From IMG/VR virus record IMGVR_UViG_3300017788_001619, positions 1 to 26,408 of that record: DNA of 26,408 nucleotides. The stretch is one strand, 5' to 3'. This DNA is from a virus. Below are positions 4,934 to 25,000 of the stretch, one piece after another. The notes under the pieces were generated by a model. That model saw only the letters and a program-made list of their open reading frames with translations, searched no databases and had not been told where the DNA came from. The position numbers and the translations under genes are program-made. Every line of letters starts with the position of its first letter. The first letter of the stretch is position 1.

Positions 4934-6090
4934 TCTTGTATTTCCCTTATATCTTTAACTATAAATGAATTGTTTTTTATATCTCCAATCATAAGAATAT
5001 TATTTCCCTCAAATATAGAAAACCTATGTTCTTCTCTCACATCTGGAAATACAACTATATTGTCGGCTTCTCCTGTATCATCCTTCACCGAAAGAAAACA
5101 CATTTCCCGCCCTTTATTAACCCCTTCTTTTTTAATTGTATGAGTGTTTATTCTTGATATACAACAAGATAATCTTACACCCTGACAATTTCCCCTATTT
5201 GCTATTTCTTCACATGTACAGTTAGCTACCATTTGCGAAGGCATATTGTATTTGTCTATAGATAGGCATACCCCCATCATCTTTTCTTCTTCATCTATAA
5301 GCCAACTTGGATCATCTACATCTAAATCATAAGGCGGATTCTCCAATAGAAGTATCTCACTAGTTATAGCCGCCCTTCTATTCTCTGTACTAGTTCCGCC
5401 ACCATTTTTCTTCGCAGGTTTCAAGTCCATCAAGCACGATATTAAATCCCCCCATTTTTTTTGTTCAAAATTCTCATTTATCCACTTTATTTCGCCCTCT
5501 TTTAGTTTACTATATATACCGTATTCATAAAGGCATCTTGTTCTAGTTAGTTTCTTATCTAGACACTGGAAAAACCCTATTGAACATAGGGCTTTGAAGG
5601 CTGTAGATTTCATATTCTTAGATAATAAAACTAGTATTTCCATCCAGGTTGGATTTTTGTTAATACCTTTTAGCTTGTTTATTTCCGCTATTGCTTTATC
5701 ACCATCTACACCTGTCAGCGATTTCACGTATTTCAATCCAAAATCTATAGAATTAGTTTTTCTATCTATTTTGAAAGTTTCATCGAACTTGTTAAAATCA
5801 CATAAATTTACAGTTATACCAAATGTCTTAGCCTCTGATACTAGTTGTTCTATTTCTTCATGCATATCCTGTTTTTCGTTTGCAAACTCTAGGTAAGCAC
5901 AAAAAAAGTCAAGTGGATACATGTATTTGGCATAAGCTGTAAGTAAGGCGGTTTTAGCATAGGAGTATGCGTGGGAATTACTTGTGGCTATACCATTTCC
6001 ATAAAACAAATGTTCTTTAGAATCAACTTCTATATCTACAGACCTTCTTTTACCTATACTTTTAACGCCAATAATTCTTCTAGCTTGCAT
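4930..6090 (-). CDS. dnaE: DNA polymerase III alpha, C-terminal fragment with split-intein C-half
   Basis: A 386-residue precursor. Residues 1-38 are the C-terminal half of a split intein (block F 'DIEVDSKEHLFYGN', ending ATSN). Ser39 is the +1 residue, and the mature polymerase continues as 'SHAYSYAKTALLTAYAKYMYP', the equivalent of 'FNKSHSAAYALVSYQ' in bacterial DnaE. This fragment carries the rest of the fingers, the helix-hairpin-helix and clamp-binding region, and near the end an OB-fold domain ('LSCCISRINTHTIKKEG' to 'FLSVKDDTGEADNIVVF'). It stops after the OB fold, so the tau-binding tail of bacterial DnaE is missing. The ATG at 6090 lies inside the 3' end of the homing endonuclease gene (37-base overlap). 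The function needs trans-splicing to the product of 6993-7814. Confidence 0.93.
   Translation of the reverse strand: MQARRIIGVKSIGKRRSVDIEVDSKEHLFYGNGIATSNSHAYSYAKTALLTAYAKYMYPLDFFCAYLEFANEKQDMHEEIEQLVSEAKTFGITVNLCDFNKFDETFKIDRKTNSIDFGLKYVKSLTGVDGDKAIAEINKLKGINKNPTWMEILVLLSKNMKSTAFKALCSIGFFQCLDKKLTRTRCLYEYGIYSKLKEGEIKWINENFEQKKWGDLISCLMDLKPAKKNGGGTSTENRRAAITSEILLLENPPYDLDVDDPSWLIDEEEKMMGVCLSIDKYNMPSQMVANCTCEEIANRGNCQGVRLSCCISRINTHTIKKEGVNKGREMCFLSVKDDTGEADNIVVFPDVREEHRFSIFEGNNILMIGDIKNNSFIVKDIREIQE
5977..6090 (-). other. Split intein C-half (IntC) of DnaE
   Basis: 38 residues at the N-terminus of the DnaE C-terminal fragment, the same size and layout as the IntC of the gp41-1 family. It opens with a start Met and a charged strand, then block F with 'SVDIEVDSKEHLFYGNG', and ends in terminal Asn38 followed by Ser as the +1 nucleophile. 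The penultimate residue is Ser, not the usual His. The partner is the 94-residue N-half at 6993-7277. Ligation would give '...QFNA|SHAY...', which restores an uninterrupted DnaE sequence. Confidence 0.92.
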
Positions 6091-6962
6091 ATTATCTCTT
6101 CTCTATTTTGTATTATGTCATTTTCCCAAAATCTTACAAGTTTTAAATTATGTTTTAAACAATAATTATTTTTACTTATATCTCTAGCCCAATTAATTTT
6201 TTGAGACTTTGTTTTTGGTCCATCTGGATAAAATTTAGGATTAGAATGCCAATAGTCTCCATCTACTTCTATATATAGATTATAATCGTTTAAATAAAAA
6301 TCAAAAGACCAATATTCTATTATTTTTTCTTCCTCGTATTTCAATCCAAATTGTTCTATAATAGATTTTAATGCTTGATGTGGTATTGTATTTGTTTTCG
6401 CAAAACTTCCATTTTTTATTCTTTCTAAAGTCCTATATCTCATTCTAATTTTTTCTCCTTGTGAATGAGTTCTGCCTGTATGACCATGTATCAATCTTTT
6501 TTTCGCCGAATCTGACTGTTTTAATTTTACATGTTCGGGAGTTATTCTACCTTTAGCCCTTTCTGAATTTTCTCTTATAATAACATCATTATATTTATTT
6601 TTACCTTTATTCCAAGGTTGTTTTCCATACATCGGATTATTTTCACCTAATCTACTAATCTTAGCTTCTTTAGACCATTTTATTACGCCATTATTTCTAC
6701 CACAAGACATTTTCGACCAACTAAAATTTGATCCTCTTTTTATTATTTTTAAGTCTTTATTACAAATCCCGCATAAACATTTTTTTAATTCTAACCCACA
6801 ATATTTAGTAAAATATTCTACAAGGCTTATATTTTTAGAATCAAGATATTTTTCAAAAACTTCTGTGTAATATATACCGCTTCCACCATATATTTTAGAA
6901 AGTTCTTGTATTTTTTTATTATCTATTTTAGATATATGCCATAATTTTTTATCTATAATCAT
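6054..6962 (-). CDS. Free-standing Vsr-like (EDxHD) homing endonuclease with NUMOD3
   Basis: A 302-residue putative endonuclease encoded between the two halves of the split-intein dnaE. Visible parts are an N-terminal Cys cluster (C62, C64, C67, C87; likely zinc), a NUMOD3 motif 'GENNPMYGKQPWNKGKNK' at about 106-123 with a second NUMOD3-like stretch near 160-175, and a C-terminal Vsr/PD-(D/E)xK-type catalytic domain: D221, then 'IEVDGDYWHS' (E232, D234, H239), RD at 260-261 and 'FWENDI' at 278-283. This matches the endonuclease family known from fractured split-intein genes. The start ATG (6962) has TGAGG 7 bases upstream, and the 3' end overlaps the DnaE-C gene by 37 bases. It most likely cuts intein-free dnaE alleles and spreads the split element (inference from the family). 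Confidence 0.88.
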   Translation of the reverse strand: MIIDKKLWHISKIDNKKIQELSKIYGGSGIYYTEVFEKYLDSKNISLVEYFTKYCGLELKKCLCGICNKDLKIIKRGSNFSWSKMSCGRNNGVIKWSKEAKISRLGENNPMYGKQPWNKGKNKYNDVIIRENSERAKGRITPEHVKLKQSDSAKKRLIHGHTGRTHSQGEKIRMRYRTLERIKNGSFAKTNTIPHQALKSIIEQFGLKYEEEKIIEYWSFDFYLNDYNLYIEVDGDYWHSNPKFYPDGPKTKSQKINWARDISKNNYCLKHNLKLVRFWENDIIQNREEIICKLEELLALKV

Positions 6963-6992: not shown

Positions 6993-7277
6993 CTATTCTA
7001 TACACATTATTTTATAATTATATAGTATAATTTCAGATAAAGGTCTTTTAATTTCATCTTCACATAAAAATCTATGATCTAATGAACATATAATAGTATA
7101 TCCTTCTTCAACTTCTACTTCGTACAATTCTTTTTCGCCAGATTCAAAGAAATTTAAAACTTCTACAAACTTATCTCCATCTTCTGTAGGACAAAGTATT
7201 TTTTCCCCAATACTTAATTCATCTAATGTTTTAATTTCTCCACGATCTGTTTCTACGAATGTGTTTGGGTCTAAACA
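6993..7277 (-). other. Split intein N-half (IntN) of DnaE
   Basis: 94 residues after 'YQFNA', beginning with Cys1: block A 'CLDPNTFVETDRGEIKTLDE' and block B 'YTIICSLDHRFLC', where the usual TxxH reads CSLDH (residues C-S-x-x-H). The layout and length match the gp41-1-type IntN, whose block B likewise reads CSxxH. There is no endonuclease domain in the intein itself. The coding sequence ends with TAG at 6993-6995, 31 bases before the start of the endonuclease gene. Confidence 0.92.
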
Positions 7278-7814
7278 TGCATTAAATTGATATCTTGCAC
7301 TTTTCTCGATAATCTCAAATATCTCTAAACCTTTTTCTCTAGAAACCATACCAGTCTTTTCGCAGCCATCTACAAATTTAGATTTTAGTTTTTCCATAAG
7401 GTCTACTTTTTTCTTACCAATAGCTTTTCTTAATTTATCAGCTTCTATATCTGTAAATCCAGCTATCTTTTTAGATATTTGCATAGTTTGTTCTTGATAT
7501 AACATAAGACCCAATGTAGGCTCTAATATATCTTTACATGAGTCGTGAATGTATGTAATTGGCTCACGTTTATGTGCTCTATCAATATAGTGCTGTGTTA
7601 TAGACTTGTCTTCTATTAGAGCCTTTAACGATCCTGGTCTAAGAATGCTTACTAAAGCAGAAAGTTGTTCTAGGTTTTTTGGTTCAAGTTTTCTAGACCA
7701 ACTCTTACCAAGATTGCTTTCTAATTGGAATATACCTTTAGTTTTACCATTAGCAAAAAGGTCCCATACTCCACTGACACTTTCTATGTTATCATTCCAC
7801 ATACAATTTTCCAT
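6993..7814 (-). CDS. dnaE: DNA polymerase III alpha, middle (fingers) fragment with split-intein N-half
   Basis: A 273-residue precursor. Residues 1-179 match the DnaE region that follows the last catalytic Asp: 'GIFQLES', 'LSALVSILRPGSL', 'LEPTLGLMLYQEQTMQI', 'LRKAIGKKK' and 'EKSARYQFNA' are the fingers-domain signatures. Cys180 starts the intein N-half, which runs to the stop. The ATG at 7814 is preceded by AGGAGC at 8 bases and overlaps the exonuclease gene by 23 bases. No polymerase catalytic Asp is present here; they are all in the separate gene at 8777-10279. After trans-splicing with the 4930-6090 product this piece would become a polypeptide of about 527 residues that must pair non-covalently with the N-terminal subunit. 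Confidence 0.93.
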   Translation of the reverse strand: MENCMWNDNIESVSGVWDLFANGKTKGIFQLESNLGKSWSRKLEPKNLEQLSALVSILRPGSLKALIEDKSITQHYIDRAHKREPITYIHDSCKDILEPTLGLMLYQEQTMQISKKIAGFTDIEADKLRKAIGKKKVDLMEKLKSKFVDGCEKTGMVSREKGLEIFEIIEKSARYQFNACLDPNTFVETDRGEIKTLDELSIGEKILCPTEDGDKFVEVLNFFESGEKELYEVEVEEGYTIICSLDHRFLCEDEIKRPLSEIILYNYKIMCIE

Positions 7815-8475
7815 TTGCGAATGCTCCTGGTAGTTTTTGTGATAAAAGTTTTTGATACAACTCTCTTTGAGTTTTCATAAATAATATAAGTAAATTAGCA
7901 GTATCTTTAACGTCTTTTAGAGCGTCGTGTGCATTTTCTTTAGATAATCCGGTTATTTCCCTTATTTTATCTAAACTAACAGATTTAATATCTGGGTCGC
8001 TCTCTGTCCATGAATAAACCAAGTCCATAACATCTATCTTAAAAATTGGACTAAATATATTCTGTCTGCCAGTTTTATCTACATTACCAAATTGTTGACA
8101 TAGCCTATTTATAATTGGCATATCGAAGTTTATTATATTATATCCACAAGGGATAGGGGCGAACCAAGTTGTTTTATTAAAATTGAATTTATTTACAAAA
8201 TCGACGAATTTGGGCCAAACATATTTCATTTCTGGGGCCTTAGAAATGTTTTCTCTAGTTTTTCCAGTAACTTTTAATGCACCCTCTTGTATAGGTTCTA
8301 AGCCTAGTTCTATAGCTTTTTCATCATCTGTTTCTGCAAATACTTCAGAATTAAAAGAACCTTTAAGCTTAAAACTTCTACCATCTAAGGCTATTGCTGC
8401 TATTTGTGTAATTTGACAAGTATATGGATTAGCACTACCAGTTTCCATATCGAATATAATTAAATCTTTAGGCAT
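7792..8475 (-). CDS. DnaQ-like DEDDh 3'-5' exonuclease (proofreading)
   Basis: A 227-residue exonuclease of the DnaQ/RNase T superfamily. Motif ExoI is 'FDMETG' (D9, E11), ExoII is 'YNIINFDMPII' (D118), and ExoIIIepsilon is 'HDALKDVKDT' (H183, D188), giving a complete DEDDh set. It lies between the N-terminal and middle fragments of the DnaE polymerase, so it is probably the proofreading subunit of this replicase. That fits the loss of metal ligands in the polymerase PHP domain. The ATG at 8475 directly follows the preceding stop and has AAAGGAAC upstream. The alternative, general repair exonuclease, is less likely given the position. Confidence 0.88.
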   Translation of the reverse strand: MPKDLIIFDMETGSANPYTCQITQIAAIALDGRSFKLKGSFNSEVFAETDDEKAIELGLEPIQEGALKVTGKTRENISKAPEMKYVWPKFVDFVNKFNFNKTTWFAPIPCGYNIINFDMPIINRLCQQFGNVDKTGRQNIFSPIFKIDVMDLVYSWTESDPDIKSVSLDKIREITGLSKENAHDALKDVKDTANLLILFMKTQRELYQKLLSQKLPGAFANGKLYVE

Positions 8476-8799
8476 TTATTGTTCCTTTATTACATACATT
8501 CTATATTTTATGATTTTGTTACCTAGTAAACCAGTTTGGTAATGCTTATCAGTAGAAACTACTTTATATACATTTCCATGAATATCATAATACTCTTTAT
8601 CTACTTTGAAATCTTCCTTAGTTATAATATCTATAATAATACCATCAGTACTTATCGCAAAGAATGTCATATTTAAATCATCACCATTCTTATCAAATAT
8701 GGTTTCATACTTATTTTGGATATTAAAAGGTTCTAATATTGGACCATAACTCCAAACACCAGATGTATGAAATGGATTAGTCTTTTGCAAGTTCTTCAA
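8476..8799 (-). CDS. Hypothetical protein between dnaE-N and exonuclease
   Basis: A protein of about 104-107 residues that I do not recognise. The frame opens with TTG at 8799, but GAGG is only 2 bases from it. A second TTG at 8790 has the GAGG at a better spacing of about 10 bases, so the true start may be 8790. It overlaps the 3' end of dnaE-N by 14 to 23 bases. The sequence is rich in short beta strands ('MTFFAIST', 'GIIIDIIT', 'NVYKVVSTD', 'IIKYRMYVIKE'), like a small beta-barrel or SH3/OB-type domain. It has no cysteine cluster or membrane segment. Its location between replicase genes makes a replication accessory role possible, without direct evidence. Confidence 0.6.
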   Translation of the reverse strand: MKNLQKTNPFHTSGVWSYGPILEPFNIQNKYETIFDKNGDDLNMTFFAISTDGIIIDIITKEDFKVDKEYYDIHGNVYKVVSTDKHYQTGLLGNKIIKYRMYVIKEQ

Positions 8800-10279
8800 T
8801 CCTCATTAATTTGCTTAATACTGAAACCCCAAGTATATCTAACTTCACTAAACTTAAATCCTCTAACGGCCCCATTTCCATTTGTGCGATTCCGTCTATA
8901 ATTGGGCATATATTAATCAACGCCTCTTGAGATATAACTATTCCAGCGGCATGTGTGCCCATATTCTTATAAGTACCCTCAAGTTTTATAGCCTGAGCAA
9001 ATTGTTCTGCATAATCGCCTGTTAATTTATCTTCATTTATAGCACAAAATGGTTCAAGTTCAGATTTCTTGTGTATTAAAGCCCATCTTATGATACTTCT
9101 TTCATCTTCATCCATTTTCTTTAATTCGTCTGATATAGCCGCTTCATCTGGAATATGTTTTGTCATTGCATTCATTTCTGAAAAGCCGCAAGACTCATTA
9201 ACCCTTAATACTTCCTTCAAAACGCTTCTTCCCTGTAATCGGCTAAATGTAGATATTTGAGCTACATTATCTTTCCCGTACTTGTTTACCACATAGTCTA
9301 TAATTTCATCTCTTTTACAAGATGGAACGTCAAGATCAATATCTGGAAGAGATACGTTCCCCTCTGTATTTCTAGCCTCAGAATAGAACCTTTCAAACAA
9401 AAGATTATATTTTATGGGGTCTAGTTTGGTTATATCCATAAGGTATGATATCAAACAACCTGCCGCAGAACCTCTACCAACCCCTGTTAGGAATCCTTTA
9501 GAATTAGCATACTTAATGATATCATAAACAATAAGAAAATATCCAAACAAATTAGCTTCTTTAATAACTGAAAATTCATGCTGAAATCTTCTAAGATATT
9601 CATCTTTCTGTGCTGTGCTCTTTAAAATTGGTGTTATCTTTTTGGTCCAACCTTCTCTGCAAATATCCTTTAGAAATTCTTCCTCAGTTTTTCCACTAGT
9701 TGGAAAATGCGGTAACTGTGGAGATTTTAGTATGTTATATTCTTCACAATCGTTTATTATGCCATTTATTAAATCTGATTCATAACCAAATTCCGGCAAA
9801 CATAGGTCTTGTGTGAATATGTGTTTATAAGATTCGGGTTTTGGGTCTTTTCTCGTTATCTTTAACCCACTACAAACAGATATTTGATGAACATCTTGGT
9901 CTGAAGAGTCGCAATAGTAATAAGCCTTTATGGAACCATCATTCAGCCTAAAGTCTTTGAAGTCCTTTCTTGTGTCAGATACGCATATAAGATTATCTGT
10001 AGAGGTCTCTACATTACTGTGGATTTTGATTAATTCTTTCCACCCGTCTTTGTTTTTAGCGAATAAGAACGTATCTTTATCTAGAGCCATACCAAGTATT
10101 GGCTTTATACCCTTCTCTTTGCATAGTTTGAAGAATTCTACGCATCCAGATATGGTTTTCATATCTGTAATACCACATACTGTATATCCGCATTCCTCAC
10201 ACTTAGCTATTAATTCTTTCGGTTTAGAAAAACCGTATTGTAGACTATAATGAGTAAAATTAGCCAATGGTACAAACAT
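8777..10279 (-). CDS. dnaE: DNA polymerase III alpha, N-terminal fragment (PHP, palm, thumb)
   Basis: A 500-residue polypeptide that covers the N-terminal half of bacterial DnaE. It has a PHP domain at about 1-230, palm motif 'GVGRGSAAG' at 267-274, 'LPDIDLD' with catalytic D313 and D315, 'GTHAAGIVIS' at about 441-450, and 'LVKLDILG' with the third catalytic D481. It then stops 19 residues later, just where the fingers domain should start; the rest is encoded by 6993-7814 and 4930-6090. There is no intein at this break. The PHP metal motifs are degenerate: where active PHP domains read HxH and TDH, this one reads A-N-F and TDM, so PHP nuclease activity is not expected. The ATG at 10279 follows AAGG and overlaps the upstream stop as TAATG. 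Confidence 0.95.
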   Translation of the reverse strand: MFVPLANFTHYSLQYGFSKPKELIAKCEECGYTVCGITDMKTISGCVEFFKLCKEKGIKPILGMALDKDTFLFAKNKDGWKELIKIHSNVETSTDNLICVSDTRKDFKDFRLNDGSIKAYYYCDSSDQDVHQISVCSGLKITRKDPKPESYKHIFTQDLCLPEFGYESDLINGIINDCEEYNILKSPQLPHFPTSGKTEEEFLKDICREGWTKKITPILKSTAQKDEYLRRFQHEFSVIKEANLFGYFLIVYDIIKYANSKGFLTGVGRGSAAGCLISYLMDITKLDPIKYNLLFERFYSEARNTEGNVSLPDIDLDVPSCKRDEIIDYVVNKYGKDNVAQISTFSRLQGRSVLKEVLRVNESCGFSEMNAMTKHIPDEAAISDELKKMDEDERSIIRWALIHKKSELEPFCAINEDKLTGDYAEQFAQAIKLEGTYKNMGTHAAGIVISQEALINICPIIDGIAQMEMGPLEDLSLVKLDILGVSVLSKLMRIEELAKD

Positions 10280-12252
10280 TAATTACCTTTTCCTGGTGCA
10301 TCGTAATTTGAAGAATTAAATCCACTCGCCTTGAGTTTGGTTTGTGCTAGCTTTATACCGTAAGTCTTTATACCATTTTCAACATGTTCACAAATATTTT
10401 CTTCCGTTCCTGGAAATGGCGTCTTGTAGTAGTGACACAGCCTAGTACACTTAAAGCTAGTTCTACCGGAAGAACATAATTTAGGCATTTTGGTATAACT
10501 TATCTCATAGAACTTTTTACGAAGTCTTCTTAAAAACTCTTCTTCATCTTCCTTCTCGAAAGAAAGCGAGAAGGGTCCCCCATCCCTTAAAAAAATTATA
10601 GTGAGAATCCGGTGTTTGTATTGGGGGTAAAGTTTGGAAATAGCGTAATTATATAGAAGTAATTGAGTATCTTTCATTAGTTTGTGATAGTCTTTTATTT
10701 CTCCTGTAGCCCAATCCTTTCTTTGGCCTGTATTATGTGTTGGAATCATATTTTCTGTACATAGATAAGTTTTACTAGGGCTATCTACCATGATACATTG
10801 TGTATATTTTTTACCTATAGGAATTATTTCTTTTATTTGTCTCTTATTAGATTTTCCTGGACCCCATTCAGACTTTATCACATTAGCTTTTCTTGGTAGT
10901 AAAAACGGATTTATATTAATAGGTCTAAAGAAAATATCATAAGATGAAACCGTTAATCCAAATCCATTCTTTTTTAATTCCTTTAGATATGGTCGTTGTC
11001 CTAAACTAAGTAAAACTTCTTTAAAATCTTGTGATAGTTTTTTATTACAATTAACAAAATGACCCTGTTTTCTTATAGGATTTGCATATCCATCGCTATC
11101 CATAAGACCTCTTACTAAATCTAACCTTTGTGTAAAAGAAGATTTTTTATATATATTTGGTATATGTTTGTTATTTAACAATCCCAATTTTCTTAACTCA
11201 GTTGTTAAACTAATAATAGTATGACTAGGACAACGTTTACCGCCTCCAGAAATATCTTTACCTATTTTATATCCTCTTCTTTGTATTTCTTCAAATATAA
11301 ATTCATCATTACCACAAATTTCTCCACATCTATTTCTACCATCACCAAGCCAAACTCCTAAAACATATGGATCAATTGGTAATGGTTTATTATCATATTT
11401 CACAACTTTTGCCGTATCTATATTATCTTTTATTTTTAAATCTTTTATTTGGACTTCTTTTCCATTCGATAATAACCAAATATGTTCATCATCACATTCT
11501 ACTTCACTAGTATCATCAAACAATATTCTATAACAATCTTTATATTTAACTTTAGATTTGCCAGTGACAATGGTTTCATTGCCATCTTTATCGTACAAAG
11601 TATCTCCAACAACTACTTCTCCCATAGTAGTCCAACCATCAGGTGTTAATAATTTAGTTTCTAATGGAAGCCCTTTATAGTCTCTTACCTCTATAGTTTC
11701 TTCGTCTAACTCTGTTACTAAGTCAATAGTTCCCTTTATTGCTAATTGATAACTTTTACCCTCGTAAGTAAATTTAGCCCAATCTTCTTCTATAGGTATA
11801 TCAAAGAAGGGTTCTGGGTCTAGTATTTTACTATTTCTAGGGTCGTAAATTCCCGAATATTGATCTGTTATAACTTTACATAAATCAAGACAAAAATTAA
11901 AGTCTTTTTCTGTGTACTCATGTATGCACTTAGAGGAATAATACAAAAAACTCTTCCAACATAAATCATTGACAAATTGTTCTGTTACAAATTCAGATTT
12001 CTTCCAATTTATAGTACCAAGTTCTGGATCAATATATTTAAAAGAGGCTTTTCTATTGGGGTTTTCTTGTAGTTGTTTTTTACAATTAGCTAGAATTTCC
12101 ATAGTCTTATGGACTATTGTTCCTAATTGTGCTTTTTGATTTGCTGGTGCTTTATGTCCTAATACATATTGAATAAAGTACTGCATTTGACAAAATTCGT
12201 GATTTCCAAGGCTACTACTTCTAAAGTATATAGTAGGTATATTGATTCCCAT
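10279..12252 (-). CDS. RecB/Cas4-like PD-(D/E)XK nuclease with class 3 intein
   Basis: A 657-residue precursor whose intein (194-507) leaves a mature nuclease of 343 residues. The host protein has the RecB-family nuclease core: 'GTIVHKTME' near 44-52 (H48), 'GTIDLV' (D177) and 'VRDYK' (D191, K193), continued after the intein by 'TGQRKDW', so the mature motif is DYKTG. C21 near the N-terminus and a Cys cluster after the catalytic domain ('CSSGRTSFKCTRLC') suggest an iron-sulfur staple as in Cas4 and AddB. It probably processes DNA ends in recombination or replication together with the RecA-like protein. The ATG (12252) overlaps the kinase stop as TAATG. The nuclease cannot have a complete active-site loop until the intein is removed. 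Confidence 0.88.
   Translation of the reverse strand: MGINIPTIYFRSSSLGNHEFCQMQYFIQYVLGHKAPANQKAQLGTIVHKTMEILANCKKQLQENPNRKASFKYIDPELGTINWKKSEFVTEQFVNDLCWKSFLYYSSKCIHEYTEKDFNFCLDLCKVITDQYSGIYDPRNSKILDPEPFFDIPIEEDWAKFTYEGKSYQLAIKGTIDLVTELDEETIEVRDYKGLPLETKLLTPDGWTTMGEVVVGDTLYDKDGNETIVTGKSKVKYKDCYRILFDDTSEVECDDEHIWLLSNGKEVQIKDLKIKDNIDTAKVVKYDNKPLPIDPYVLGVWLGDGRNRCGEICGNDEFIFEEIQRRGYKIGKDISGGGKRCPSHTIISLTTELRKLGLLNNKHIPNIYKKSSFTQRLDLVRGLMDSDGYANPIRKQGHFVNCNKKLSQDFKEVLLSLGQRPYLKELKKNGFGLTVSSYDIFFRPININPFLLPRKANVIKSEWGPGKSNKRQIKEIIPIGKKYTQCIMVDSPSKTYLCTENMIPTHNTGQRKDWATGEIKDYHKLMKDTQLLLYNYAISKLYPQYKHRILTIIFLRDGGPFSLSFEKEDEEEFLRRLRKKFYEISYTKMPKLCSSGRTSFKCTRLCHYYKTPFPGTEENICEHVENGIKTYGIKLAQTKLKASGFNSSNYDAPGKGN
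10732..11673 (-). other. Class 3-type LAGLIDADG intein in the RecB-like nuclease (Gly1)
   Basis: 314 residues (194-507 of the precursor) inserted between K193 and T508 of the DYK|TG motif. It begins with Gly in 'GLPLETKLLTPDGW', so the usual Cys/Ser/Ala1 is absent. The class 3 'WCT' signature is visible: W259 in 'DDEHIW' (block B), C486 in 'TQCIMVD' (block F) and T505 in 'PTHN' (block G). Two LAGLIDADG motifs, 'VLGVWLGDG' and 'LVRGLMDSDG', make up the endonuclease domain. It ends in His-Asn with Thr at +1. Confidence 0.92.
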
Positions 12253-12977
12253 TATTTAGCTATTTCCTCAAATCTGAATGACAACGTGTTAATAAAATCT
12301 TCATGCGATAACATAGAGTTATCTATAACCATATCATAATCACGATATCCATCCAGGGCAATTTCGCTTTCATGTTTAAGATTAAGGACATTTCTAGTTA
12401 GTTTTATCAATCTTCCCTTATTCTTTCTTATAGCTTTAGCCTCATTTAGAAATCTAAGGTCTGTTATAATGGCTATTTCTGGTTGTTCCTGTTGTATTGT
12501 TCTTATGGTTTTATTTACCCATACATTATCGTATATTCTTCTCATTACTTCTGTTCCGAAATACTGCATTATTTCTATACCAGACATTGGGCCTTGTAAA
12601 GTAACTTCCCCTGGCATATCTTCCCAATTTATATGAGTTTTTACATTTCTTTGTTCCTCATTTCCGTAAACCGATTCTTCAGAAACATCGAATAAATCAA
12701 TTATCATATCTTTTAGGGGTTTTGCGAAACTATAGCATTTAACATAGGGCCAAATAGTTTGTGAGGCATGAATATAGAATTCTTCGTCTCTTCTATCTAA
12801 ATCTAGCACTCCCCAATCTATACTACCATCACTAAAAGCGGTTTCTACTAAAAGTTTACCTTCTTCATTAATAAAGAAGTCCTTTACTAAACCCTTGTCC
12901 TTTAGTACTCTACCGGTAATATAATTTCCAAAAGTATTCTTGCCAGAACGTTTCTTACCTGCTATACCTATTATCAT
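12252..12977 (-). CDS. Deoxynucleoside monophosphate kinase (T4 gp1-like)
   Basis: A 241-residue P-loop kinase. Walker A is 'GKKRSGKNT' at 7-15. Further conserved dNMP kinase features are 'FAKPLKDMI', 'GIEIMQYFGTEVMRRI', 'VWVNKTI' and 'AIITDLRFLNEAKAI', the arrangement seen in T4 gene 1 and related phage enzymes. It phosphorylates dNMPs to dNDPs and so feeds the dNTP pool alongside the ribonucleotide reductase and dUTPase of the same module. The start ATG at 12977 shares one base with the primase stop (TAATG) and has AAAGG upstream. The kinase stop in turn overlaps the nuclease start. Confidence 0.85.
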   Translation of the reverse strand: MIIGIAGKKRSGKNTFGNYITGRVLKDKGLVKDFFINEEGKLLVETAFSDGSIDWGVLDLDRRDEEFYIHASQTIWPYVKCYSFAKPLKDMIIDLFDVSEESVYGNEEQRNVKTHINWEDMPGEVTLQGPMSGIEIMQYFGTEVMRRIYDNVWVNKTIRTIQQEQPEIAIITDLRFLNEAKAIRKNKGRLIKLTRNVLNLKHESEIALDGYRDYDMVIDNSMLSHEDFINTLSFRFEEIAK

Positions 12978-13990
12978 TAATAATATCCTTTTAAATCTAA
13001 TAAAATATTTTCTTTTATGTATTGAGGGGACATTTTCCCTATATCTTTTTTGGACGAAAATCTTGGGAATATTAGATTGTAATACCTACCCAAATTTCTC
13101 ATTATAAGCGTTTTAGACTCTCTGCCTGCTGTATCATTGTCTAGTAATATAATCAAGTTTGTAACACAAAGATTATCTATCTTCTGTCTTTGAGCCTGGG
13201 AAAACTCTTTACCCATTAATGAAACACAGTTCATAACACCGGCCTCATACATTCTCCAAACATCCCCAGAACCTTCTACTATAAAAGCGACATTCTTTTC
13301 TTTGATTTTTTCAGCCGCCCTATGATAGTTATATAAGTAATTAGTCTTTTGGAAACTTTTATCTACTAGAAATTTTGGTTCTAGCCAATCTTTGGTTGAT
13401 CTATAAAGGTTGGCTATAACCTTCATTCCATCGTCATTATGTACTGGTATTACAGCCCTATATCTTGATATGCCGGTTTTTAGTAATGAATCTCCTATAT
13501 TGAAATATGTAAGGGTTTTTGGGTCATACATCCTTTGTTTTACGAAATACTCGGAAGGTATAACTACATCTTTAAAATTGTTATCAATCTCTGGGGGCTT
13601 TGTAGTATTATTACTATATATCCCCTGTAGATATGTTAGTAAATCAACTTCTTTATTTGGTACAAACCCTGTGGCTTTAATATTGAAGGTTGAAGTTACC
13701 CATTTTAGGACATCTACAAATTGATAATCTTCCCCCTTCTTGTGTAAAACGCCCCTTATCAAACCAAATATGTCGTTCCCAAACTCTTGGTGACAATTAC
13801 TAGTCCAACAAATCCACTTACCATTTTTGTAATAACTAAAACTTCTATCGCTATCTCCGTCATGTATAGGACACTTACAAGAAATAAAATTACCTGTATT
13901 GTCACACTCTATACCAAGTTTCTCAAATACTACAGATATATTTTCTTTTAAAAACTTCTCTATATCTTTTATACTATTCTTCAAGATCAA
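12977..13990 (-). CDS. dnaG: DnaG-type DNA primase
   Basis: A 337-residue primase, about half the length of bacterial DnaG. An N-terminal zinc-binding domain has C38, C40, H43, C61, C66 and H67 ('CKCPIH' and 'WTSNCH'). A TOPRIM domain follows with 'FIVEGSGDVWRMYEAG' (E239) and 'LLDNDTAGRES' (D284, D286). There is no room for a C-terminal helicase-binding domain. It makes RNA primers for lagging-strand synthesis with the DnaB-like helicase encoded immediately upstream (17-base overlap). No ATG is present near the start: the frame opens at TTG (13990), and a second TTG at 13984 has GAG at a better distance and may be the real start. Confidence 0.88.
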   Translation of the reverse strand: MILKNSIKDIEKFLKENISVVFEKLGIECDNTGNFISCKCPIHDGDSDRSFSYYKNGKWICWTSNCHQEFGNDIFGLIRGVLHKKGEDYQFVDVLKWVTSTFNIKATGFVPNKEVDLLTYLQGIYSNNTTKPPEIDNNFKDVVIPSEYFVKQRMYDPKTLTYFNIGDSLLKTGISRYRAVIPVHNDDGMKVIANLYRSTKDWLEPKFLVDKSFQKTNYLYNYHRAAEKIKEKNVAFIVEGSGDVWRMYEAGVMNCVSLMGKEFSQAQRQKIDNLCVTNLIILLDNDTAGRESKTLIMRNLGRYYNLIFPRFSSKKDIGKMSPQYIKENILLDLKGYY

Positions 13991-15425
13991 GCTCTATGTT
14001 TTCGGTTTCACCACTTTGTACTAACCCTCTATCATTTAATGATCTTCTAGCCTCATTCCTTGTACCTATTTCTTTAATAAGGCCAATACTACCATCAAAC
14101 GATATGTTGATATAATCTCCATAATCTAAACCTGCACCGTGTCTAGAAACTATAGGTACTAATTTTCTATTACCATTCCTAACTCCATCATCAGCCATTT
14201 CTTCTAGTGTTTTGTGCTTGAAAATTGTAAAGGATGTACATAACCACACAATTCTATCAGAACCGCTTACTACATCGGTACTTTCCCTTGTCTCGCCTTC
14301 TCTGTTCAACTGTACAAACGAAAGACATGGAATATCTAACTTAACGCATATATTATGAAGTTCACTAATTTGAAAACCCAATGCTTGATACTCTTGTATA
14401 TTTGCATTGATACTACTAGAACTCATAAGTTTCAAATAGTCATAGATAACAAGACAATCATTAGTCTTACCTTCTTCGTTTTTACCAACAACCTGCATAA
14501 CCCATCTTTTGATATGATTGGCTATTACGTTAAATGGTTGACCGGCGACATTAATATAGTAATAATTAAATTTAGAAAATTTTAAAGCAGCTTCTTTTAC
14601 AAGCTTTTTCTTTTCTTCACATTTTCCAAAGCTTCCGTTTTCTATTTCATCTAATGTCACACCACTTAAAGAAGCTAATATTCTATGATAGTGATCTTCT
14701 TTAGACATTTCTGTATCAAGTAATAATACAGGATAATTTTTTGTAGAACATATATTAATAGCCATAATATCAGAAATAAAACTTTTTCCGACTTTGCTTC
14801 TTGCCGCTATAACATTAACCGTTTTGCGTCTTAGTCCACCACCTATAGATTTATCATATCTAGTAAATCCAGTTGGTATACCTACAAAATCACAAGGATT
14901 ATTTTCAAGAAAATCTACATATTCTAATATATCTTCCCCAAATTTCTCTGGCTTTTCTCCTATAGATTCCATAGATATAGCTTTAACTAGGGGTTTTTCA
15001 ACTATATCAATTATTTCATCTATAGATTCCATACCAGAAACCGAATTAAGATTTTCTAGTATCTTTTTAGCCTCTTCTTTTAGACCCCTTAAAAAAGATA
15101 GTTTCTTAATTTGTGCGGCAAACTTAAATACGTTGTCTTTGTTTATATTTAAAGTTTTTAAAGATTTGATATAATCCAGGTCTGAGCTAATTTCTTCTTT
15201 TAGATTTAATTCTGTTGCGGCAGACGTTAAGGAAGGAACGTCTATACTCATACCCTTTTCTATAATGTATCTTAAACATCTATATATTATAGCGTTTTGG
15301 TCATTATAAAAGTCAACTTCCTCTATTATATCCTGTATTTCTACATATACTTCTGATCCGTACTGAAACAGTCCAGAAAGTACAGCCCTTTCAGAGCCAA
15401 AGTCGAAATCTTTTTTATCCACCAA
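13974..15425 (-). CDS. dnaB: Replicative DNA helicase, DnaB-like
   Basis: A 483-residue hexameric helicase. The N-terminal DnaB domain opens with 'SERAVLSGLF' and 'VDFYNDQNAIIYRCL' (about 11-52). The RecA-type motor domain has 'GIPTGFTRYDKSIGGGL' at 182-198, Walker A 'ARSKVGKS' at 208-215, 'LLLDTEMSKEDH' at 234-245, Walker B 'LVIYDYLKLM' at 325-334 and 'SFVQLNREG' as motif H4. It unwinds the fork and partners the primase encoded next. The first codon in frame is TTG at 15425; GTG at 15422 is spaced better from AAAGGTG. No loader gene is recognised in the window. Confidence 0.93.
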   Translation of the reverse strand: MVDKKDFDFGSERAVLSGLFQYGSEVYVEIQDIIEEVDFYNDQNAIIYRCLRYIIEKGMSIDVPSLTSAATELNLKEEISSDLDYIKSLKTLNINKDNVFKFAAQIKKLSFLRGLKEEAKKILENLNSVSGMESIDEIIDIVEKPLVKAISMESIGEKPEKFGEDILEYVDFLENNPCDFVGIPTGFTRYDKSIGGGLRRKTVNVIAARSKVGKSFISDIMAINICSTKNYPVLLLDTEMSKEDHYHRILASLSGVTLDEIENGSFGKCEEKKKLVKEAALKFSKFNYYYINVAGQPFNVIANHIKRWVMQVVGKNEEGKTNDCLVIYDYLKLMSSSSINANIQEYQALGFQISELHNICVKLDIPCLSFVQLNREGETRESTDVVSGSDRIVWLCTSFTIFKHKTLEEMADDGVRNGNRKLVPIVSRHGAGLDYGDYINISFDGSIGLIKEIGTRNEARRSLNDRGLVQSGETENIELDLEE

Positions 15426-19147: not shown

Positions 19148-20833
19148 TCAACTTTCTAAAGCCTTTAATACTTTTCCAATTATACCATTCCTTTGTATGT
19201 CTGATGTATCGAATTTAACATTTCCAATACCCTTTATATCTTTTAACTTGTTTATACAATATAGAAGAGAAGATGGGGTTTTTCTTAGGTCTGTTTGGTC
19301 TAAGTCTCCATTTATAATTACCTTACTATCTTGGCCTATTCTTGTTATGAACATCTTTAACTGTTCTAGCGTACAGTTTTGGGCTTCATCTAAAATCATT
19401 ATAGCATTATTAAATGTTGAGCCTCTCATTAATTCTAGTGGCTTATATAGTATAAACCCCTGACTAAAATAGTCTTTATACATATCTCCCAAAAAGAATC
19501 TAAAATTTTCTTCTAGTGGTAATAGATATGGCATTATTTTTTCATCTAATTCTCCAGGTAATGCTCCTATATCTTTACCAGTACAAACCAAAGGTCTTGT
19601 AACTACTATTCTTGATATATCTCCCTTATGTAATTTTTCAGAAGCTAAACCAGAGGCTATGAATGTATTATGTGTCGGTATAAAATTATTAGTAATATAT
19701 AAGTGTTTATCATCATCAATAGATATACATTGACAATCTTTGACTCCTATTCTACTGATAGAACTAATATAATGATAATTAGTTCCTTTTTGTTTCTTTT
19801 TTAATCTATTTAATTTTCTATCCAAAGAAAATAACTTTAAATTTTGAATATCTTTAATATATAATCTATAAGAATAATTATGAGTAGTTTCCTTTCTGTT
19901 TATTGAAACTATACAACCTAAAGATTCAAGAATTTCCTTCATATCATAAGCCAAATCAATAGAAGATGATGAATATTCAATATTTCCATTTTTATCAACG
20001 CAACCATCAGTATCCATTAATCCCCGTATTAAATCTAATCTTACGGATAGGCTATTGTATTTATATTCATTTGGAATTTTTTTATCTAATGATGACTTAC
20101 CCATCAAATTTAAATTTTTTAGATGTTCTTTGTAAGGGTTTTTTATTTGTGGACAAGATTTTTCTTTTTTAGTAATAGAATAACAATATTTATTAGATAT
20201 TTTTTTTATTTTTAATTCTTCTGGTAATCTTTCCCTTACTAAATCTATAATTTGTTTATCATTTGAGGTTATAATTATATTGCCTTGAGTTATACCACCA
20301 TCCCCTAAAATAACACCTAAAATATATGGATCTATTGTTATTTCTTGATCATTAAAATATGCATATGATATTGGTTTGATTCTATATATATATCTATTCC
20401 AAATACCTCTATCTGTATAAATACTTCTAAACAATTTTTCTTGAAGCATCTCTTTTGTTGTTATAACCTTTTGTTCCCACGTTCCAGATCTATTAAGTTT
20501 TTCAACAAGCCATAAATGATCTTCGCAACATTCTACAGAATGTCCATTCTTAAAATTGATAGAATAAACCATTTTTTTTCCTTGAGGATATATAGCTGTA
20601 ATTTTGGCTACTCCCCCATGAGGAACACAAACATTATCATGTATTTTAACACTACCCATATTTACAGGACCATTTGGTGTTACAACAATAGAATCTAATG
20701 GCTGAGCTTTACCGGTTCCACTAGGTCCTGTACAAAAAGTAATATCGTTTTCTATAATTGATAAAATGTAATCTTTCTGGTTCTCTGTTTTATAGGAAAG
20801 TGGAACTACTTTAGATTTAACACACTTCGTCAT
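19148..20833 (-). CDS. phoH: PhoH-like ATPase with class 3 intein in the Walker A motif
   Basis: A 561-residue precursor whose intein (43-389) leaves a mature PhoH of 214 residues, the usual size for phage PhoH. Host motifs are 'CTGPSGTGK' with K42 directly before the intein and T390 directly after (mature GTGKT, the Walker A loop), 'IVVTRPLVCTGKDIGALPG', Walker B 'AIMILDEAQNC' and 'VIINGDLDQTDL'. PhoH-like proteins are predicted ATPases/RNA helicases common in marine phages; their exact role is unsettled. ATP binding needs the spliced form because the intein cuts the P-loop. The ATG at 20833 has GAGG upstream and follows dut by 18 bases. Confidence 0.92.
   Translation of the reverse strand: MTKCVKSKVVPLSYKTENQKDYILSIIENDITFCTGPSGTGKAQPLDSIVVTPNGPVNMGSVKIHDNVCVPHGGVAKITAIYPQGKKMVYSINFKNGHSVECCEDHLWLVEKLNRSGTWEQKVITTKEMLQEKLFRSIYTDRGIWNRYIYRIKPISYAYFNDQEITIDPYILGVILGDGGITQGNIIITSNDKQIIDLVRERLPEELKIKKISNKYCYSITKKEKSCPQIKNPYKEHLKNLNLMGKSSLDKKIPNEYKYNSLSVRLDLIRGLMDTDGCVDKNGNIEYSSSSIDLAYDMKEILESLGCIVSINRKETTHNYSYRLYIKDIQNLKLFSLDRKLNRLKKKQKGTNYHYISSISRIGVKDCQCISIDDDKHLYITNNFIPTHNTFIASGLASEKLHKGDISRIVVTRPLVCTGKDIGALPGELDEKIMPYLLPLEENFRFFLGDMYKDYFSQGFILYKPLELMRGSTFNNAIMILDEAQNCTLEQLKMFITRIGQDSKVIINGDLDQTDLRKTPSSLLYCINKLKDIKGIGNVKFDTSDIQRNGIIGKVLKALES
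19667..20707 (-). other. Class 3-type LAGLIDADG intein in PhoH (Ala1)
   Basis: 347 residues (43-389 of the precursor) inserted in GTGK|T. It begins with Ala in 'AQPLDSIVVTPNGPVNMG'. The WCT signature of class 3 inteins is present: W108 in 'CEDHLW', C369 in 'CQCISID' and T387 in 'PTHN'. The endonuclease domain has 'ILGVILGDGG' and 'LIRGLMDTDG'. It ends His-Asn with Thr as +1. It resembles the nuclease intein at 10732-11673 over blocks A, C, E, F and G. Confidence 0.92.
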
Positions 20834-21967: not shown

Positions 21968-22003
21968 AAAAAAAATTTAGGATAATATAGTTATATACAC
22001 CTA
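21968..22003 (-). terminator. Possible AU-rich terminator after nrdJ
   Basis: Minus-strand RNA after the last nrdJ codon reads UAGG...CCUA around an AUAUA/UAUAU inner stem (the stop codon is part of the outer arm), followed by a run of eight U (21975 to 21968). The stem has a three-mismatch internal loop and few G-C pairs, so termination is probably partial. Confidence 0.35.
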
Positions 22004-25000
22004 TATTTTCACTATTTCACAAGCTCCAGCACTACAAGCTTGGGCTGTATAGTTAGATATATCCTTATATTCTGGGGCTTTTAGGGCTTTTGAAAAGTCT
22101 ATTTCTCTCATTTCTCTGTTTATAGACTCCCATTTATGGTACAAATGTATGTCTTTTAGACAATATACAAGGGTTTTTAGGTCATTTTTGAAGTAGTTCT
22201 TAGCAAATTTCTTTGCCCGACCTACCCAATACTTTTTAAGCATTACCTGTTCTCTAGTACCAGAAATAGGGATATCTGGGTCCACAATACAATCACAAGC
22301 ATCCCAAAGATTATTGTTAAAATAGTGTAGACCATCTACAATTAAACCGGAAATAAATATTGATCCTTTACCGTATTTCTGGAAAATTTCTTCAGCATTT
22401 AAAATTGAAGTGAATGGGGCTTGATTAAAGTCTTTATCCCCATAATCAGAAATGAAACTTACGGCTGTAAAGTCGTCCTTATTTTCCCATATATAGTCTA
22501 TAATTTGTGGCTTGTCATCTATAATAATAGTACAATTATGTGTTAAAACATTATTTTCCATAACAAAACTATTTGTTTCTGGTTCTTCTACGCAAAAAAC
22601 GTTTTCATAAATTTCGGTTGATTTAACGCTTTCTACTATCCATTTTTTACTGTTCTGAGACTTATTTTTAAGATAATTAGAAAATCTATCTTTCTTTTTA
22701 TCATGCTTCATAAAATCTATATCTATAGAATCTTTATTTATTGATATTGTATAAAAATGCGTATTTTTAGATGGATAAGAACCTTTTCCTCTTTTATGTG
22801 TCGAAATATTATTTACAAAAACTTTACCTAAAAATGAATTTTTTTGTAACCATTCCAGATTTTCTTTATTAGCAGAAGCTAAAGACATAGTTCTTCCATC
22901 TATAGAAATATGTCCATCTGTTGCAAACCAACCTGAAATAAAACTTCTAATATAAGATTCATATTTATTTTTTGGAAATTCTTTCCAATCATTCGGTAAA
23001 CCATATATTCTAATATGGTCTTCTTTTTCTATGGTTTTATATCCAGCTAATTCAAAATATTCAGCTAAACACTTATCGTCAAATAAATAAATTTGACATT
23101 TATTATTTTTTTTATGTAATGTTCCGTCTCCGAAAACACAACCATGCAAAAACGCATCTAAATTAAAGTCTGGAAAAATATTAAAATCTACATTTTTAAT
23201 TTTCATTCCAGGTTCCAAATCTATAGTATTTCTAATTTTAATATTTGGCGAATTTCTTCTATCCCAATTTTTAACAACTAACCATTTATGATTATCCGTT
23301 GTTTTAATAGTTTTATATTGACTACCCTTTCTTAATATAATTTCATATATTTCTTGTTCTCCACCATGTATAACTTTGGATTTAGAAAAATTACCAATTC
23401 CATTTAGAACATTAATAGAATCTAATTTAGAAATTTCTTCAAAAGATTTTAAACCTTGATCTGTATAAATTTTTTCAGAAGCACTAAAACAACTACAATT
23501 ATGATTTATTTTGGGCGATATACCAAGTTCTTTTCTAGTTCCTGGTAATATCCAATTTTCTTGTACTAGCTTTATAAATTCTAAGTGTTTTACCCCATGC
23601 ATACTATTCTTAAACATAGCCCCAGTTGGGTTTATGATAGGTACGAAAACCACATAATCTGTGTTATTTGTAGACCAAACGCTTTCTTCTAATAGAAATG
23701 GCATGTTTTCATTAAGCCACTTAGCTATATCAGTGTTTTTGTTAAGCTGCATTATTCTAAAGTATGTTTCAGAATGCTCTGGATGTATTCCTGATGAAGT
23801 TTGAGCTATTACACTGAGATTACCTTCGGGTTTTACGCATGTTGTTCTAGCGGCTTTATTTATACCTAATTTAGCGGCAAGTTTTTCGTTTGTTTCAAGT
23901 ATAACCTTAACGCCTTCTTGAAGCCATTCTTTGTTAAACAATTTAGGATTATTCATCCATCCCGTAATAGAAACACCGAGTAAAGCCTCTTTCTTGGTAA
24001 GTTCTTCTGTTTTATTTTTGAAATATGAAAAGCTTGTATATCCAGCTTGTAAAGTGCCTAATACAGCTTCATCCCGACACGCCCTAAGAAAATCTTCCTT
24101 ATTCTTTATTTTTTCAGCATTCATAGATGTAAGATTACATAATTGCACACCAAACATATCTTTATTTTCTTTTATAAAATTTGGCAACTCTTCATATGTT
24201 ATTTGTGTTAAATCTTTATCTGTAAGTATTGGGGTAAACGAAATCTCGTAGCAATTATGAACTTTAAAACCATTGCATTCAAAAGCTTCAATTCCAAATT
24301 GTACAGCACAATCATATACATTATCAAGTCCGTCTAATTCGCAAATAGAAACAATTCTTTCCTCAAAAGATTGTTTATAGAATTTTTTAGAATAATTATT
24401 TAAAATTTTATTAATAATATGTTTTTTGTCTTCATTTAATATATTTATTATAGTAAATTTATCAATAGCTTCTTTAGTAATACATAATTCGTAACTATTT
24501 TGAATAGGATATATTTTACTCCCACCTTTACCATCTGGAAGAGTATTAAAACCATTTAGACATTTATTTCTATCTTTATAAATCTTTGAATATATACCTA
24601 TAGCATTTAACGCTATTTGTAAATTTTCTAAATTTTCTAGTTGTACAGAAGTTATTCTAATAGAATTACCTTTTTTCTGATTAAATGCTACTGTTCCATC
24701 TGCATCAAAGTATCCTGCTATCAATCCGTTTATATAATTAAAATCACCAGATAAAAGTTTTTTACTTAACCTTTTATTACTAATAATAGATTCATCTTTT
24801 TCTTTAATAAATTTATATAAACCACCACTACTTAAACGTGAATAAACTTCAGAATCTTCTTCTAATTCTTTATGAGGTTTTCCGATATTCCAATTCAAAT
24901 CTTTAATATATTTAATACATTTATTGTGATATTTATGATTATCTTTACCCCAAAATTTAATTTGACAACTTTCTTCAATAAAATTTCCATCAGCTAAAAA

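What the first reader, a model, noticed from the sequence alone, without database searches (positions are those of the whole stretch)
6993..10279. Second break in dnaE without an intein, at the palm-fingers boundary
The gene at 8777-10279 ends 19 residues after the third catalytic Asp (LVKLDILG), and the gene at 6993-7814 begins with the fingers ('GIFQLES'). No intein, frameshift remnant or duplicated sequence is visible at either edge. The break falls in a variable linker, and two other genes stand between. The palm with all catalytic residues and the fingers would therefore be separate chains held together non-covalently, giving a polymerase from three genes and two final polypeptides.
Basis: partly seen in the sequence, partly recalled or inferred. 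Interest (0 to 1): 0.88.

Follow-up and report, generated by a model that had tools for sequence, protein, structure and literature searches.

The report
Phage DNA polymerase split palm/fingers
A large, uncultured group of phages builds its DNA-copying enzyme from two separate proteins, one carrying the catalytic residues and one the fingers, with the proofreading gene sitting between them; the same break is kept in some 176 distinct relatives, so it is an old and working arrangement rather than damage.

Summary
On the minus strand, dnaE is broken in the palm-fingers linker: N (8777-10279; PHP + palm, all three catalytic Asp) and F (6993-7814; fingers + Int-N). No conserved residue is missing. 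A 107-aa ORF and a DnaQ-type exonuclease gene lie between.

The break is not peculiar to this phage. Of 261 related viral loci, 258 (176 of 178 after dereplication) have the same order, N - exo - fingers/C-part, with the same break. The same kind of script called 84 control loci outside the group fused. N, exo and FC are under purifying selection. Each half is confidently predicted to fold as its part of DnaE. No family A or B polymerase was found on the large contigs searched. One lineage carries a fused gene, probably a re-fusion.

Best reading: a naturally two-chain C-family replicase, with a separate exonuclease presumably acting as proofreader, assembled non-covalently. Splicing, association and activity are inferred, not shown. 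Closest precedent: the minimal split PolIII-alpha of some jumbo phages (PMC7824862), which differs in break, domains and gene order.

The parts
8777..10279 (-). dnaE-N: PHP + palm/thumb part of PolIII-alpha, 500 aa, catalytic Asp D313, D315, D481
   Evidence: Pfam PF02811 + PF07733; PDB alignment to E. coli PolIII-alpha; AF2 pLDDT 93.8 and Foldseek to DnaE structures
8837..8839 (-). codon of the third catalytic Asp (D481)
   Evidence: alignment with the LVKFDFLG motif of E. coli PolIII-alpha; invariant in 51 aligned sequences
8476..8799 (-). 107-aa ORF between N and exo, function unknown, not conserved in most relatives
7792..8475 (-). DnaQ-like 3'-5' exonuclease (DEDDh-type motifs by eye); present between the halves in all classifiable split viral relatives
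   Evidence: PF00929, phrog_192 'DNA polymerase exonuclease subunit'
7278..7814 (-). dnaE fingers (N-extein, 179 aa); start overlaps exo end by 23 nt, AGGAG Shine-Dalgarno-like site 9 nt upstream
   Evidence: PF17657, alignment, sequence
6993..7277 (-). Int-N of the split intein, starts CLDPN after FNA (94 aa + stop)
   Evidence: Hint/Intein_splicing Pfam, gp41-1-type intein hit in PDB
6054..6962 (-). free-standing homing endonuclease gene inside the split intein
   Evidence: phrog_559/9084/3339 homing endonuclease; same gene in other fractured relatives
5977..6090 (-). Int-C (38 aa) ending in SN before S (SHAYSYAK)
   Evidence: IntC homologues in L016, L040, L042, L045
4930..5976 (-). dnaE C-part (C-extein, 348 aa; the rest of the C-terminal half)
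   Evidence: phrog_405 DNA polymerase; relatives' uninterrupted FC protein folds as the DnaE C-half

Best explanation
This is a working phage replicase of the bacterial PolIII-alpha (C) family whose catalytic core is naturally two chains. Chain 1 is PHP + palm/thumb with all three catalytic Asp. Chain 2 is fingers + the C-terminal domains. The break in the palm-fingers linker arose most likely once, by insertion or rearrangement that left the proofreading exonuclease gene between the halves, and has been kept across a large clade of uncultured phages. In this phage chain 2 is additionally interrupted by a later-arriving split intein with an endonuclease gene and must be restored by trans-splicing. 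Mechanism: the genes are co-directional, and the exo-FC overlap suggests translational coupling (inferred). The two chains dock through the ordinary intramolecular palm-fingers surface, now a subunit interface (inferred). The DnaQ-like protein supplies proofreading (inferred from family). Shown: gene order, break position, conservation, selection, and predicted folds of the separate halves. Not shown: splicing, binding, activity.
For: Same order and break in 258/261 viral loci, 176/178 dereplicated, with 84 fused controls called as fused. The split loci form one clade (100/99*) among fused phage and cellular DnaEs in the first tree. Purifying selection on all three genes: window vs L016 dN/dS 0.14 (N), 0.11 (exo), 0.13 (F). 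N alone predicted at pLDDT 93.8 / pTM 0.89, intact FC of L041 at 92.0 / 0.84, both matching DnaE structures. Catalytic residues invariant. 0/32 large contigs with PolB and 0/25 with PolA. Exo-FC overlap in 68/102 loci. Distance matrices of N and FC correlate r = 0.885, 0.54 after removing exo. A fused relative, L294/L297, nested in the split clade is probably a re-fusion, as expected if the halves act as one enzyme. A precise 1,320-bp intein + HE insertion separates the L042 and L116 alleles, so the intein is a later, mobile layer.
Against: Contigs are linear, without completeness estimates, so absence of another polymerase is not proof. The mirror-tree correlation mostly reflects shared descent. 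The re-fusion reading of L294 is strong by bootstrap (0/200 trees keep the split rows as one clade) but only borderline by AU test (p = 0.06).
Confidence: 0.86

Rival explanations
1. The two halves are joined covalently after all, by an unrecognised intein, RNA trans-splicing intron halves or ribosomal frameshifting, so that the mature polymerase is one chain.
For: Split inteins do join other parts of this very gene; exo-FC (and sometimes N-exo) reading frames overlap.
Against: N ends 15-35 aa after the third Asp, which is just linker helix and leaves no room for Int-N; FC heads show no Int-C motif. No Rfam intron in the window or 8 relatives. In six relatives (L046, L047, L048, L049, L054, L059) both junctions overlap, leaving no untranslated sequence for an intron half. 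In others N and exo are up to 2.6 kb apart, so frameshifting cannot join them.
Confidence: 0.05
2. The polymerase was inactivated by a recent insertion and the phage uses another polymerase (host or second phage enzyme).
For: Host-polymerase use is common in phages (general knowledge); the window is only 26 kb of a probably larger genome.
Against: Same break in 176 distinct relatives, dN/dS 0.11-0.14, invariant active-site residues, no PolA/PolB on the large contigs searched.
Confidence: 0.04
3. N and FC form a complex that is no longer the replicase but a repair or specialised polymerase, as proposed as one option for the minimal split PolIII-alpha of jumbo phages (PMC7824862).
For: The jumbo-phage precedent coexists with a PolB.
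Against: No PolB or PolA on the searched contigs; conserved neighbouring exonuclease; helicase- and primase-like genes lie just upstream in the window (12977-15425, read from the sequence, not tested against a library).
Confidence: 0.04
4. Assembly or sequencing artefact.
For: Single metagenome-derived contig.
Against: Independent contigs from many metagenomes and MAG bins, with whole genes between the halves.
Confidence: 0.01

Closest known systems
Bacterial DNA polymerase III alpha (DnaE1-type C-family replicase, e.g. E. coli 5fku, 2hnh)
   Same: Same domains in the same order, catalytic Asp triad, predicted folds of both halves; separate DnaQ-like exonuclease as with E. coli epsilon
   Different: The catalytic core is broken between palm and fingers into two genes, with the exonuclease gene between them
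Minimal split PolIII-alpha of group 2.2 jumbo phages (PMC7824862)
   Same: A phage C-family polymerase encoded as two proteins presumed to reassemble
   Different: Those are minimal (no other PolIII domains), encoded by distantly located genes, with the Mg-binding part described as lying in the C-terminal protein, and coexist with a PolB; here the PHP and C-terminal domains are kept, the genes are adjacent around exo, all three Asp are in the N-protein, and no PolB was found
Fractured genes: split intein + free-standing homing endonuclease (Dassa et al. 2009, not held here; analogue described for PolB of phage MIJ3, PMC6892783)
   Same: The lower break (6993-6090) has exactly this anatomy
   Different: It does not apply to the palm-fingers break, which has no intein or endonuclease
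Split cyanobacterial DnaE (trans-spliced by the DnaE split intein; from general knowledge and PMC3919608)
   Same: A dnaE made by two genes and rejoined, comparable to the intein break here
   Different: Covalently rejoined; here the intein sits at the FN/SH site and the palm-fingers break is not rejoined by any visible device

Membership tests
C-family DNA polymerase (PolIII-alpha / DnaE) | PHP + palm domain with three catalytic Asp | tested here: met
   Pfam, PDB alignment, invariant D313/D315/D481 in 51 sequences
C-family DNA polymerase (PolIII-alpha / DnaE) | Fingers domain | tested here: met
   PF17657 at 4.6e-42 in F
C-family DNA polymerase (PolIII-alpha / DnaE) | C-terminal (HhH)2 and OB domains | tested here: inconclusive
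   No Pfam hit in the window's C-part; the L041 FC model aligns over ~557 columns with DnaE structures and L025 FC hits HHH_6
C-family DNA polymerase (PolIII-alpha / DnaE) | Palm and fingers in one polypeptide | tested here: not met
   Separate ORFs in the window and in 258/261 related viral loci
Fractured gene (split intein + endonuclease), lower break 6993-6090 | Int-N and Int-C on separate genes at a conserved site, endonuclease gene between, uninterrupted alleles in relatives | tested here: met
Fractured gene (split intein + endonuclease), palm-fingers break | Intein halves or endonuclease at the break | tested here: not met
   the neighbours are exo and a 107-aa ORF
Minimal split PolIII-alpha of jumbo phages | Distantly located genes, no other PolIII domains, PolB present | tested here: not met
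   Nearby genes in one cassette, PHP present, no PolB on 32 contigs
Minimal split PolIII-alpha of jumbo phages | Sequence homology of the two halves to the jumbo-phage proteins | not tested
   No jumbo-phage sequence was fetched for comparison

The most novel reading that the evidence does not exclude
An undescribed family of obligately two-chain C-family replicases in which the polymerase active site is completed only by association of a palm subunit with a fingers subunit, encoded as a palm - proofreader - fingers cassette and used as the sole replicase by a widespread group of uncultured phages. Assembly could be a control point, and in some members a Cys-rich (CGC) N-terminal extension of the fingers subunit may serve as a docking element.
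Probability: 0.65. Interest if true: 0.82.

Novelty: new variant of a known kind. Interest (0 to 1): 0.74.

Why it matters
As far as I know, replicative DNA polymerases keep palm and fingers in one chain, apart from cases rejoined by inteins. A clade that has lived with a permanent break between the catalytic palm and the fingers would show that covalent continuity there is dispensable, offers a natural split C-family polymerase to reconstitute in vitro, and would let one ask how nucleotide selection and fingers motion work across a subunit interface. It also warns annotators that many phage 'partial dnaE' genes may be real subunits.

Tried and rejected
Close-relative scan with N as single query found none. 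Several 'phage' tblastn hits (e.g. L002, L004, L010, L011) look like bacterial chromosome contigs from their neighbouring genes and served only as fused controls. Among the listed hits of the phages collection no member of the clade was found; best identities below 42%. Rejected: recent frameshift or pseudogene, intron (no Rfam hit), hidden intein at the palm-fingers break, assembly artefact. The gp23-type capsid search rang nowhere, so it says nothing; no tail-sheath family (PF04984) hit in 17 large contigs, so phage morphology stays open. MAG bins holding clade contigs (SAR202, Verrucomicrobiales, Flavobacteriales, Lokiarchaeota, Alphaproteobacteria) disagree, so no host is assigned. Dassa 2009 was not held. 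Nine paper searches found no description of this arrangement.

Full report
Observation. The window is a 26.4-kb linear viral record with its main genes on the minus strand. N (8777-10279, 500 aa) carries PHP and PF07733; F (6993-7814) carries the fingers family PF17657 followed by an intein N-half. The third catalytic Asp is D481, aligned with the LVKFDFLG motif of E. coli PolIII-alpha; N ends 19 residues later. Aligned to fused DnaEs, the break falls in the variable palm-fingers linker and the tail of N plus the head of F account for it without losing a conserved residue. Between them lie a 107-aa ORF and a DnaQ-like exonuclease (PF00929, phrog_192 'DNA polymerase exonuclease subunit'). F starts inside the end of the exonuclease gene (23-nt overlap) behind an AGGAG site.

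Relatives. A scan of IMG/VR with the exonuclease gave 24 loci, one with a fingers alignment gave 80, and two deeper ones gave 157 more, with overlaps. In all 104 loci of the first two scans the order is N - exo - fingers, with N and fingers in different ORFs. Over all 261 loci, 258 are split with exo between, 2 are fused and 1 is cut off; after removing near-duplicates 176, 1 and 1 of 178. Applied to other DnaE loci, the same kind of procedure reports 84 fused, so it does not create splits; the 6 split loci in that run are contigs of this clade inside MAG bins, and 4 loci were too partial to classify. The break sits at the same place in the clade: N ends 15-35 residues after the third Asp, and FC begins 18-65 residues before the G-x-FQ motif. 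Sampling was by similarity to the fingers or exo, capped at 80 loci a scan, so the counts describe the neighbourhood of this phage, not all phage DnaEs.

Two layers of breakage. In most relatives fingers and C-part are one gene without intein. The intein is sporadic: the sister L016 has it in cis without endonuclease; L040, L042-L045, L269 and L294 have intein and endonuclease. L042 and the intein-free L116 differ by a precise 1,320-bp insertion. The intein is therefore late and mobile, while the palm-fingers break is old. In the first tree the 39 split rows form one clade (100/99*, one change of state).

A fused relative. L294/L297 carry N and fingers in one ORF, with exo moved directly upstream (4-nt overlap) and the fractured intein at the same site. 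In a careful tree it nests in the split clade (96/89* and 99/97*; no bootstrap tree of 200 keeps the split rows as one clade), which reads as a re-fusion; the AU test is borderline (p = 0.06), so retention of the ancestral fused state is not excluded. The exonuclease tree does not settle its place.

Function. N, exo and F are under purifying selection (window against L016: dN/dS 0.14, 0.11, 0.13; close pair L018/L022: 0.17, 0.05, 0.06). The catalytic residues are invariant. AlphaFold2 predicts N alone at pLDDT 93.8 and the intact FC of L041 at 92.0, matching PolIII-alpha structures at Foldseek E-values of 1e-33 and 5e-22. Large contigs hold no family B (0 of 32) or family A (0 of 25) polymerase, though none is known to be complete. 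The exo and FC genes overlap in 68 of 102 loci, consistent with translational coupling. Distances of N and FC correlate at 0.885 (0.54 after removing exo), mostly shared descent.

Could the halves be rejoined? N has no room for an intein half, FC heads show no intein C-terminal motif, no Rfam intron is present, and in six relatives both junctions overlap so that no untranslated sequence exists, while in others the genes are kilobases apart. Non-covalent assembly through the normal palm-fingers contact is the simplest mechanism. It is an inference: association, splicing and activity were not tested, and the complex could not be modelled with the tools here.

Known or new. The lower break is an ordinary fractured gene. 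For the palm-fingers break the closest report is the minimal split PolIII-alpha of some jumbo phages (PMC7824862), which lacks other PolIII domains, is encoded by distant genes, places the Mg-binding part in its C-terminal protein and accompanies a PolB. The arrangement here differs in each respect. Of two surveys of bacterial PolIII-alpha searched for splits, one mentions intein-split and fragmented sequences and the other none of this kind. I rate it a new variant of a known kind.

Verdict.

Noticed in passing
L294:5407-10782 and L297: Fused N+fingers gene nested within the split clade, with exo directly upstream and the fractured intein at the usual site: probable re-fusion.
   Followed up: yes
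L042 and L116 (contigs of 221 and 206 kb): Each contig holds two split-dnaE copies about 146 kb apart, one with intein and endonuclease and one without; possibly over-length assemblies of variants.
   Followed up: partly
FC proteins of many relatives, e.g. L025:9689-9800, L105:8911-9000: 61 of 102 FC proteins carry an N-terminal extension with a conserved CGC motif (F.CGC.F ... L.C), absent from the window; possibly a metal-binding or docking element evolved after the split.
   Followed up: partly
L027:4947-8089; L102:4308-6609; L126:1861-4932: The N half is itself broken again in the palm by an inserted stretch, a further interruption of this polymerase.
   Followed up: no
window 8777-10279 and relatives L041-L064: The PHP active-site motifs are degenerate in the window's branch (NFTHYS, ITDM) but look intact in other clade members (LHVHSHYS, TDHG), and the window's N is about 120 aa shorter, mainly in the PHP region.
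   Followed up: partly
window 10279-12252, 19148-20833, 22001-26296: The PD-(D/E)XK nuclease, PhoH-like and ribonucleotide reductase genes also appear to hold inteins (two in the reductase), making this phage unusually intein-rich; in the window only the DNA polymerase intein is split.
   Followed up: no
L357 (Alicyclobacillus phage MMB025, PV686781): An isolate phage of another lineage has dnaE broken into 736-aa and 286-aa genes around an endonuclease gene.
   Followed up: no
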